Source of the DNA: Ignisphaera sp.
Lineage (GTDB): Archaea; Thermoproteota; Thermoprotei_A; Sulfolobales; Ignisphaeraceae
Reading direction: 5' to 3'
Assembly: GCA_038735125.1 (NCBI GenBank)
Contig: JAVYNU010000011.1
Span: 1 to 57,610, forward strand
DNA: 57,610 bases
The notes under the pieces are model-generated. The model saw nothing but the letters and a program-made list of their open reading frames with translations, was not told the origin of the DNA and made no database searches. The translations under genes and the position numbers were made by a program. This document shows, one piece after another, positions 42,112-57,610 of the stretch (position 1 is its first letter; the number at the start of each line of letters is the position of its first letter).

Positions 42112-43198
42112 AGTTGGTATTCTTGGTGGTGGCCAGCTAGGGTGGATGATGGTTCTAGAGGGTAGGAAATACCCACTAAAATTCTTTGTCATGGACTCTC
42201 CAGAAGCGCCAGCCTGTAGAGTTGCTGACAAGTGTTTCAAGCCAGATGAGTATAGGGAGATGATAGACTCTGTAGATGTTGTAACCTTCGAGTTTGAGCA
42301 TGTATACGAAGAAGCCCTTAGATATGCACATGAAAAAGACAAGCTTTTGCCAAGTATCGAAAGTGTTGAGCTTAAGAGACAGCGGTGGAAGGAGAGGGTA
42401 TTCTACAAAGAACACGGCATACCAACGCCGAGATTCTTCATAGCGTATGATGCGGAGGAGGTGTATAGAATAGCTAAAAACGAGTTCAACTACAAATGCG
42501 TTATCAAGCAGTCGACAGGAGGCTACGACGGAAAGGGACAATATCTCATAAAATCCAAAAACGACTTAGATAGCAACATAGATTCTATTAAAAAGATTCC
42601 AGACGTTTTTGTAGTTGAAGAGTTTGTGGAATTCGATTACGAGGCATCTATAATAGCTGTTAGAACCTTTGATGGAATGTTCAAAACATATCCACCCACA
42701 TACAATCACAATGAGAAAGGAATTCTAGTGTACAACTACGGTCCAATAAGCAATGGGTATATATCGATGAAGATGACAGAAATAGCCAAGAAATTAGCAG
42801 ACTCTCTAAACTATGTTGGTGTAATGGGGATAGAATTCTTTGTTAGAGAAGATGAGATACTAGTAAACGAGTTTGCGCCAAGAGTGCACAACACAGGGCA
42901 CTACACACTAGACGCTGCATTCACATCCCAATTCGAAAACCATGTAAGAGCGTTGCTAGGGCTAGAAATAGGCGAAACAAAGCTTCTGTCTTGCGGTGGA
43001 ATGGTAAATATTTTGGGTCTGAACAACCCACCTCTAGAGGTACTAAAATACGGAAAACTCTATTGGTATGGAAAAAACGAGGCTAGAAAAAGAAGGAAGA
43101 TGGGGCATGTAAACATAGTTGGAGAAACATTAGAGGAGGTAAGAAATAAGATTGGTAAGGTGATGGAATTACTGTATCCAAATGGATTAGATCTATAG
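42077..43198 (+). CDS. purK: N5-carboxyaminoimidazole ribonucleotide synthetase
   Basis: A 373-aa ATP-grasp enzyme that makes N5-CAIR from AIR, ATP and bicarbonate, the substrate of PurE. The start has [17 protein letters not shown] (pre-ATP-grasp fold), then [30 protein letters not shown] (ATP loop), [17 protein letters not shown] and [18 protein letters not shown]. Length and motif order are normal. ATG at 42077 lies inside purE, so translation is coupled. The TnpB right-end relic begins 15 bp after its stop and may have affected the original terminator. Confidence 0.97.
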
Positions 43199-43213
43199 AA
43201 GTATTTATGACAA

Positions 43214-43400
43214 GTCTAGAGGTCTGACTTTTATGTGGGTCTTCATCCCTCACGGTTTCCTCTACCCCCACCTGTGGGAGCCTAGCTTCATCGCCTTAGC
43301 CTCCTGCATCGCTCTGCTAAACTCCCTTGAGCGAGGGTAGAGGGGTTTGGGGGCTTCATCCTTATCTCGCAACTGCCCACAGCTCGTCAGCTTCCCCACA
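43214..43400 (-). mobile_element. TnpB (IS605-type) right-end relic, copy 1
   Basis: On the minus strand, codons at about 43399-43303 read GSCEIRMKPPNPSTLAQG then SLAERCRRLRR and stop, which looks like the C-terminal tail of a TnpB/OrfB protein of IS200/IS605-family elements. After it comes a structured region with hairpin AGGCTCCCACAGGTGGGGG, then GAGGGATGAAGACCCACAT and AGACCTCTAGAC at 43225-43214, taken as the element's right end. The body of the gene and any left end are missing. A near copy lies at 57495-57610. The right end of such elements also encodes the 3' half of the TnpB guide (omega/re) RNA, so an RNA remnant may persist. Confidence 0.6.
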
Positions 43401-43623
43401 TCTCATATACTAATTGGTACTAATAGGTTTATAAGTGATGAAGAAACATGATAGCATATAGAGGGTTGAAGAAACTCGGATACACACAATGAGCCTACTA
43501 ACATAAAATCTCAACACTTTCACGAAGTTGCAGTGTTTCTAGAACTGAAAAACATTTATCAAATCAACGTTTAAATTAAACATATAAGCACAAAAATTTC
43601 CACAGAAAACTAAAGCATTAAAC
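43401..43623. other. Intergenic, no gene seen
   Basis: AT-rich spacer between the TnpB relic and the C/D-box sRNA. A GTGATGA at about 43433 resembles a C box but has no D box at the right distance. No coding frame with a ribosome site is present, and no remaining part of the TnpB gene is evident. Confidence 0.4.
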
Positions 43624-57494: not shown

Positions 57495-57610
57495 GTCTAG
57501 AGGTCTGACCTTTATGTGGGTCTTCATCCCTCATGTGTCTCTCTGCCCCCCGCCTGCAGGAGCCTGGCTTCATCAGTCAGCCTCCCCCATCCCTCTACCA
57601 GACTCCCATT
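57495..57610 (-). mobile_element. TnpB (IS605-type) right-end relic, copy 2, cut by window end
   Basis: From 57495 the plus strand repeats the sequence at 43214 with one mismatch over about 38 bases (GTCTAGAGGTCTGAC, then TTTATGTGGGTCTTCATC). Similarity continues through the CCCCGCCTGCAGGAGCCTGGC hairpin region. On the minus strand the window edge reads GSLVEGWGRLTDEA, matching the GSLAERCRRLRR tail of copy 1. The copies differ by several substitutions and one indel, so both are old. The TnpB body may continue beyond the window. Confidence 0.6.

What the first reader, a model, noticed from the sequence alone, without database searches (positions are those of the whole stretch)
43214..43400. 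Solitary TnpB right end next to purK
A tail of about 30 codons of a TnpB-like protein plus the conserved right end remains, with no body and no left end. Such right ends hold the scaffold and guide part of the TnpB guide RNA, so it could still yield a guide RNA targeting with a TnpB in trans, or be plain debris.
Basis: partly seen in the sequence, partly recalled or inferred. Interest (0 to 1): 0.5.

Follow-up and report, generated by a model that had tools for sequence, protein, structure and literature searches.

The report
Miniature mobile element carrying guide-like RNA
Beside purK sits a short, gutted mobile element that has kept both its ends and an apparently intact gene for a structured RNA, whose full-size relatives pair that RNA with a small Cas12-like nuclease, so this genome seems to carry stand-alone guide-RNA genes that one nuclease could share.

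Summary
The right end is real, but its reading changes. It is a 329-bp element (43215-43543) with BOTH ends, TTCTAGA left and CTCTAGA right. There is no TnpB protein tail at 43262-43399: frames are not conserved between copies. The conserved part is a ~190-nt structured RNA (43215-43404, minus strand) behind its own TATA box; 19 of 49 pairs show two-sided changes over 9 sequences (0 of 500 shuffles). The genome holds 6 copies. In two larger copies (one with a broken gene) the RNA stands divergently upstream of a TnpB/Cas12f-like nuclease (RuvC D/E/D kept, no zinc ribbon), not at the gene's 3' end as in canonical TnpB. An RNA match in that position was found at 39 of 58 archaeal nuclease loci. 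The window copy keeps only 10-14 nuclease codons, at its other end. In Zestosphaera, 14 of 22 RNA matches were newly fetched; none has the gene nearby. Part of the RNA in one relative is Rfam's Sulfolobus sRNA Sso133. Best explanation: a non-autonomous element with a self-promoted omega-like guide RNA whose guide would be the right flank, usable in trans. Cleavage is inferred, not shown.

The parts
43215..43543 (-). non-autonomous element (329 bp with both terminal hexamers); internal-deletion relative of the larger copies on C1 and C2
43215..43220 (-). right terminal hexamer TCTAGA (within CCTCTAGA)
43538..43544 (-). left terminal TTCTAGA (hexamer TCTAGA 43538-43543)
   Evidence: TTCTRGA at the left of 12 of 12 inspected copies, in 8 of which the end was placed by homology or an empty site and in 4 by the motif itself
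43215..43404 (-). structured RNA, omega-RNA-like scaffold: P1, long P2 hairpin, 3' stem P3
   Evidence: CM R1 210.6 bits, E 1.6e-56 (the window row is one of the 9 sequences the model was built from); RNAfold z -3.4 for 43214-43410; covariation 19 pairs, 0/500 shuffles; 47 of 49 pairs kept
43428..43435 (-). TATA box CTTATAAA of the RNA's own promoter (by sequence)
   Evidence: a loose TATA pattern is met in the corresponding 210-nt stretch of 45 of 58 relatives, without a chance control
43195..43214 (-). candidate guide: first 20 nt of flanking DNA after the RNA scaffold (inferred)
   Evidence: position only; no trans target found
43448..43492 (+). remnant of the TnpB-like gene C-terminus, MIAYRGLKKLGYTQ*
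43262..43399 (-).
57500..57609 (-). second copy of the same RNA, cut by the contig end
   Evidence: 62.5 bits, model 63-188; 100% identical over 115 bp to the C12 copy

Best explanation
The locus is a miniature, non-autonomous derivative of a family of archaeal mobile elements whose full-size members read: left end - nuclease gene (TnpB/Cas12f-like, RuvC-active-looking, no zinc ribbon) - small ORF, weakly AbrB/MazE-like - divergent promoter - ~190-nt structured RNA - right end. The window copy lost the nuclease and small ORF by internal deletion but kept both ends, the TATA box and an intact RNA (shown by sequence and covariation). Inferred mechanism: the RNA is transcribed from its own promoter through the right boundary into the flank, so the 3' flank becomes the guide; a family nuclease made in trans by the C2 copy binds the scaffold and cuts DNA in which the flank lies joined to TTCTRGA, that is the empty donor site, favouring retention or recopying of the element. 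Shown: anatomy, RNA fold, boundaries, multi-copy spread, one exact empty site (of the C2 copy), predicted nuclease fold and conserved triad. Inferred: expression here, RNP assembly, guide length, cleavage, retention.
For: Six copies in the genome, one partial; both ends shared with larger copies; the larger copies encode a TnpB-related protein (P0001: TIGR01765 2.1e-6, TIGR01766 2.8e-6, both below their curated cut-offs; over 15 family proteins TIGR01765 in 14, TIGR01766 in 13, Cas12f2 in 10, guided_TnpB in 9 at E<=0.01). RuvC residues D208, E272, D339 invariant in 15 of 15. AlphaFold pLDDT 82.5 matches a Cas12f1 over 294 residues at Z 20.9 and ISDra2 TnpB over 276 at Z 15.3 (best Foldseek E 4e-9). 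RNA covariation. RNA model hits in 39 of 58 loci at E<=0.01, 39 of 39 of them divergent and upstream of the gene; a 40th hit is a partial antisense one over the same RNA in L008. Empty site: the C2 element interrupts a gene that is uninterrupted in two same-genus genomes. Solo copies in another genus: 14 of 22 Zestosphaera matches fetched as new loci, none with the gene within ~1.5 kb, three sharing the same ~315-bp unit with different flanks. Independent sRNA overlap: RF02814 Sso133 inside the RNA of L032 (87 bits).
Against: No RNA reads or biochemistry. The candidate guide of the window copy has no second target. No match to the Y1 transposase family (PF01797) in this genome, so what moves the element is unknown and the copies could be immobile now. 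19 of 58 loci gave no R1 match at E<=0.01. Sso133 does not match the window copy at Rfam's threshold. The direct TCTRGA repeats at both ends are as compatible with a target duplication as with IS605-type ends. The C1 copy has a broken gene, and the C2 gene runs on at its 3' end into the interrupted host gene (its residues 376-423 match a same-genus gene at 73%), so activity of the only candidate nuclease is unproven.
Confidence: 0.7

Rival explanations
1. Plain debris: a MITE-like deletion derivative whose RNA part is kept only because it forms the right end; no guide RNA is made or used.
For: Nuclease body absent; three of the six own-genome copies (window, C12, C1b) have no family gene match beside them; no trans target for the window guide; no Y1 transposase match in the genome.
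Against: TATA box and 47 of 49 pairs intact in the window copy at 91% identity to the C2 copy; solo copies in Zestosphaera diverge in sequence (R1 29 to 195 bits among the 14 fetched, two or so partial) yet most still score well with TATA-like boxes. Recent spread alone could also keep copies intact.
Confidence: 0.25
2. The RNA belongs to the nuclease element but is not a DNA guide: it could regulate the nuclease operon from the shared divergent promoter region, or serve in transposition as bridge RNAs do for IS110.
For: The RNA is divergent and shares its intergenic region with a small ORF that is weakly AbrB/MazE-like (E 0.035-0.038 in 2 of 5, below cut-off); no cleavage data.
Against: It does not overlap the gene, so it is no antisense; the predicted protein fold is Cas12f/TnpB over 294 residues; the RNA ends at the element boundary, as omega RNAs do; solo RNAs persist away from any such operon.
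Confidence: 0.2
3. One reading: a canonical IS200/IS605 TnpB right end with a 30-codon tail of the TnpB ORF.
For: An open stretch exists at 43262-43399; canonical TnpBs occur in the genome; one canonical TnpB remnant has a weak RNA-model match just past its end (L192, 27 bits).
Against: Frame not conserved in copies; the gene lies on the other side in the opposite direction; no BLAST match between this right end and the loci of the PF07282 TnpBs.
Confidence: 0.03

Closest known systems
IS200/IS605 and IS607 TnpB with omega RNA / reRNA (ISDra2, SisTnpB7)
   Same: RuvC nuclease with TnpB/Cas12f fold (predicted); structured RNA ending at the element's right end, followed by variable flank; a motif at the left end
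   Different: RNA is a separate gene with its own TATA box, upstream of and divergent from the nuclease gene (39 of 39 loci with a model hit) instead of sense-overlapping the tnpB 3' end as described for S. islandicus (PMC11043419, passages read); no zinc ribbon; a small ORF lies between; no TnpA in the element
NCBIfam TIGR01765/TIGR01766 'TnpB-related protein'
   Same: most family members match these models at E<=0.01 (14 and 13 of 15)
   Different: models name the protein only; P0001 itself is below both curated cut-offs
Cas12f (CRISPR type V-F)
   Same: closest solved fold, Z 20.9 to a Cas12f1
   Different: carried by a short mobile element with its own RNA; CRISPR arrays were not searched for
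Rfam RF02814 Sso133 (Sulfolobus sRNA133)
   Same: lies inside the homologous RNA of L032, end of P1 plus P2
   Different: 73-position model; the record as shown by the tool names no nuclease, guide or element; window copy not matched at threshold
PATEs / MITEs of IS605-type elements (recalled, not tested by a call)
   Same: both ends kept, coding part deleted, multi-copy
   Different: these carry an RNA gene with its own TATA box, so the RNA could be made without the tnpB mRNA

Membership tests
Canonical TnpB-omegaRNA (IS200/IS605, IS607) | RuvC D-E-D triad in a TnpB/Cas12f fold | tested here: met
   D208/E272/D339 invariant in 15 of 15; predicted fold
Canonical TnpB-omegaRNA (IS200/IS605, IS607) | C-terminal zinc ribbon (PF07282) | tested here: not met
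   no Pfam family at E<=1 for P0001; no CxxC in the A1 alignment between the GT[ST] and third RuvC motifs (read by eye)
Canonical TnpB-omegaRNA (IS200/IS605, IS607) | guide RNA sense-overlapping the 3' end of tnpB | tested here: not met
   RNA divergent and upstream at 39 of 39 loci with an R1 hit
Canonical TnpB-omegaRNA (IS200/IS605, IS607) | RNA scaffold ends at the element right end so that the flank is the guide | tested here: met
   scaffold ends at the boundary hexamer, flanks differ between copies; empty site. Transcript end not seen
Canonical TnpB-omegaRNA (IS200/IS605, IS607) | RNA-guided DNA cleavage with a TAM | not testable with these tools
   TTCTRGA is only a candidate TAM
Canonical TnpB-omegaRNA (IS200/IS605, IS607) | Y1 transposase available | tested here: not met
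   PF01797: no match in G000; matches in 4 of 9 genomes tested
Non-autonomous (MITE-like) derivative of the family | both ends shared with a larger copy, coding body deleted, different flanks | tested here: met
Rfam RF02814 Sso133 | match at the family's gathering score | tested here: inconclusive
   met by L032 (87 bits vs 44), 1 of 14 loci scanned; not by the window, whose only match is a tRNA
IS110 bridge-RNA system | DEDD RuvC-like plus Tnp domain recombinase and bispecific bridge RNA | not tested
   no search aimed at it; the best folds are Cas12f/TnpB
Cas12f CRISPR | CRISPR array next to the effector | not tested
   arrays not searched

The most novel reading that the evidence does not exclude
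A clade of archaeal, zinc-ribbon-less TnpB/Cas12f-like nucleases has moved its guide RNA out of the tnpB message into a separate divergent gene with its own promoter. The guide RNA then spreads on its own as miniature elements, so one nuclease can be programmed by a genome-wide set of dispersed solo guides (three here besides the larger copies, about a dozen in Zestosphaera), a CRISPR-like many-guides-one-effector arrangement without an array.
Probability: 0.5. Interest if true: 0.85.

Novelty: new variant of a known kind. Interest (0 to 1): 0.7.

Why it matters
TnpB guide RNAs are, in the described systems, cut from transcripts that overlap the nuclease gene, which ties guide supply to that gene. 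A family in which the RNA is an independent, promoter-driven gene that also exists without the nuclease would show how guide and effector became separable, a step that CRISPR-Cas12 also had to take. It would give compact (~350-420 aa) nucleases from hot-spring archaea with a natural two-gene format, and it offers a testable explanation for one Sulfolobus sRNA family (Sso133).

Tried and rejected
Rejected: protein tail at 43262-43399 (frames). Rejected: sequence relation of the right end to the genome's PF07282 TnpBs (no BLAST match at E 1e-3), with the L192 reservation told above. Rejected: a trans target for the window guide (over 11 genomes 63 matches at up to 3 mismatches against 83 for the reversed pattern, in G000 9 against 6; the only one at 1 mismatch or fewer is its own junction; four have 2 mismatches). 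An RNAfold pairing of ATGTGGG with the 3' CCCACAT was given up for the covarying P1/P3 structure. Empty site for the window copy: G009 lacks the element between conserved flanks, but its spacer is some 50 bp shorter and poorly alignable, so the site is not base-exact; the C2 copy gave the exact one. A rigid sequence motif for the RNA was found in the divergent upstream strand of 35 of 58 loci, several of them off position; controls were 0 of 58 on the other strand of the same stretch and 11 of 58 on either strand of 300 nt on the 3' side; it was replaced by the covariance model. The fold z-scores use plain shuffles and are not used. The 19 loci that R1 missed include some that look alike by eye (for example L029, L078) and several distant ones in which I see nothing clear. 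Left ends of L162/L196, L182, L183 and L189 were not determined and are left out of the 12-copy motif count. Of 22 R1 matches in G092 I fetched 14 as new loci and held one with its gene (L026); seven weak ones were not looked at; of the 14, L198 is a partial match (model 63-147) and L189 lacks a clear P1. Alignments of two further RNA subgroups (A3, A4) were made but their pairs not counted. Plasmid collection: no relative of the L032 protein at E 1e-5. Literature: ten searches, judged from titles and abstract openings, listed no paper on a divergent or upstream guide RNA for a TnpB family; two combinations gave 0 papers. That covers only the held open-licence library; one paper asked for by id was not held. 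Papers opened: PMC12558985 (abstract, section 3.5, passages), PMC11043419, PMC12817955, PMC3432209 and PMC11061315 (passages). Attribution of Sso133 to a particular study would be recall and is not claimed; PMC3432209 reports S. solfataricus sRNAs found by RNomics and by L7Ae co-precipitation.

Full report
What is there. Read on the minus strand, the window holds TTCTAGA (43544-43538), a left end, a TATA box CTTATAAA (43435-43428), a ~190-nt RNA (43404-43215) and the right-end hexamer TCTAGA (43220-43215). The unit recurs: the own genome (1.81 Mb, 12 contigs) has six places, the window included, with 81-100% identity, one of them cut by the contig end at 57610 and 100% identical over 115 bp to the C12 copy. 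The window copy's left part (43447-43544) matches the far end of the larger C1 copy (75% over 105 bp), so it has both ends and an internal deletion.

It is not a protein tail. The ORF 43262-43399 is not conserved: in nine copies the longest open frame changes frame and indels of 1-2 nt occur inside it. Instead the stretch folds: z -3.4 against shuffles for the single sequence, and on nine sequences from five genomes (five own-genome copies; G014; Zestosphaera; two further Desulfurococcales records) 95.0% of cells pair, 19 of 49 pairs have two-sided changes (shuffled mean 8.1) and none of 500 shuffles reaches any of the five measures; sliding the partners by one column drops pairing to 52-56%. 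The window copy keeps 47 of 49 pairs. The structure has a 5' stem P1 around a conserved GA-rich core, a long hairpin P2 and a 3' stem P3 that closes at the element's right boundary. P3 is mostly invariant in this set (one of its nine pairs has a two-sided change), so its support is mainly by conservation, not covariation.

The larger relatives. Copies on C2 and C1 carry, on the other side of the RNA's promoter and in the opposite direction, a TnpB-like gene: an open frame of 423 aa on C2, broken pieces in two frames on C1. The last ~48 residues of the C2 frame match a host gene into which the element is inserted: two same-genus genomes have that gene uninterrupted, and the two flanks join there with a 2-bp overlap, TCTGGA standing on both sides of the insert. 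The protein has no Pfam match at E<=1, weak matches to TnpB-related NCBIfam models, invariant D208, E272, D339 in 15 of 15 relatives and no CxxC zinc ribbon. Its predicted structure (pLDDT 82.5) aligns over 294 residues with a Cas12f1 (Z 20.9) and over 276 with ISDra2 TnpB (Z 15.3). No Y1 transposase (PF01797) match was found in the genome.

Breadth. The protein matches 55 of 197 genomes of the order at E<=1e-8; three of these (G003, G007, G009) match only through the host-gene tail of P0001, and many others at 30-38% identity over the RuvC half only, so 55 overstates the close family. Named records with relatives include Desulfurococcales, Zestosphaera, Acidilobaceae, Vulcanisaeta, Caldivirga, Metallosphaera yellowstonensis, Thermococcus and Bathyarchaeota (75 loci, close and distant). 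Of 58 distinct genes with an aligned N-terminus and at least 380 nt upstream, 39 have a match to the RNA model at E<=0.01. All 39 lie upstream on the divergent strand, 37 of them 143-328 nt from the estimated gene start; a 40th match is a partial antisense one over the L008 RNA. Five of the 39 loci (L008, L018, L026, L027, L054) gave sequences to the model and a sixth (L162) is another copy of the same subgroup. In the other 19 the model finds nothing at that level. A small ORF (50-54 aa) between gene and RNA was read in 8 of 16 loci by a simple rule; two of five tested resemble MazE/AbrB weakly (E 0.035, 0.038; below cut-off); the C2 copy's own 61-aa frame there has no family match.

Solo RNAs. 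Besides the window, the copies on C12 and C1b have no nuclease. So RNA-only elements have moved. With stricter filters, 16 of 197 genomes of the order match at E<=1e-6.

Ends. In 12 copies of this RNA subgroup the left end reads TTCTRGA: L007, L008, L009, L010, L011, L179, L180, L181, where it was placed by homology between copies or by the empty site, and L025, L026, L027, L054, where the motif itself placed it. The right-end hexamer equals the left one in 11 of 12 (exception L054). This fits a target duplication, or IS605-type ends in which left and right cleavage sites resemble each other; I cannot decide. In another subgroup the left flank is less constrained (a T before GCC in 9 of 10 copies).

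Is it transcribed? Not shown here. In L032, 74 nt of the homologous RNA are Rfam RF02814, Sulfolobus sRNA133, 87 bits (the only one of 14 loci scanned with such a match), which suggests that the family's RNA has been seen as an sRNA in Sulfolobus. A circRNA survey reports for S. solfataricus circular RNAs at the 5' end of IS200/IS605 transposases and in three unclassified IS (PMC12558985, abstract and section 3.5 read), which would fit but is not tied to this family. For S. islandicus, most IS605-group tnpB genes but not the IS1341 type were found with a 3' sense-overlapping transcript (PMC11043419, passages read); whether any IS1341-type member is of this family is unknown.

Mechanism. By anatomy the RNA works like an omega RNA: its scaffold ends at the element's right boundary and a run-through transcript would carry the flank as guide. 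A target in trans was not found for the window copy, so the expected target is the empty donor site. The layout differs from known TnpB systems in that the guide RNA is a separate, divergent gene with its own TATA box, which also explains how it can exist without the nuclease. The claim that it guides cleavage is inference from fold, layout and homology.

Verdict. The window feature is a non-autonomous member of what looks like an undescribed variant (as far as ten literature searches of one open-licence library go) of the TnpB/omega-RNA kind.

Noticed in passing
57500-57609 (minus): A second copy of the RNA runs off the contig end and is identical over 115 bp to the copy on contig C12: the contig break is probably repeat-induced.
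   Followed up: partly
L192 (G000:C8:94494-94673, minus): A weak RNA-model match (27 bits) with its own TATA-like box lies on the same strand just downstream of a canonical PF07282 TnpB remnant: a solo RNA of another subgroup, or possibly that TnpB's own RNA.
   Followed up: partly
L193 (G009:C4:82004-82183): A same-genus genome has an AbrB-like ORF plus the divergent RNA but no family nuclease within the 3.2 kb fetched.
   Followed up: partly
L032:1173-1246 (minus): Rfam Sso133, a Sulfolobus sRNA, is a fragment (end of P1 plus P2) of this nuclease-associated RNA.
   Followed up: yes
L011 (G000:C1:123634-123823): A solo copy sits at the 3' end of a RIO-kinase-like gene (name by eye, not tested), with a canonical TnpB tail remnant on its other side; the element end appears to supply the stop codon.
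   Followed up: partly
L001, L002 (G000:C2:63880, C8:41188): Two canonical TnpBs of this genome are followed in frame, right after the stop, by the same codons RGEP and then by pieces of different genes, so their right end seems to reach just past the gene and they seem inserted in other genes (by eye).
   Followed up: no
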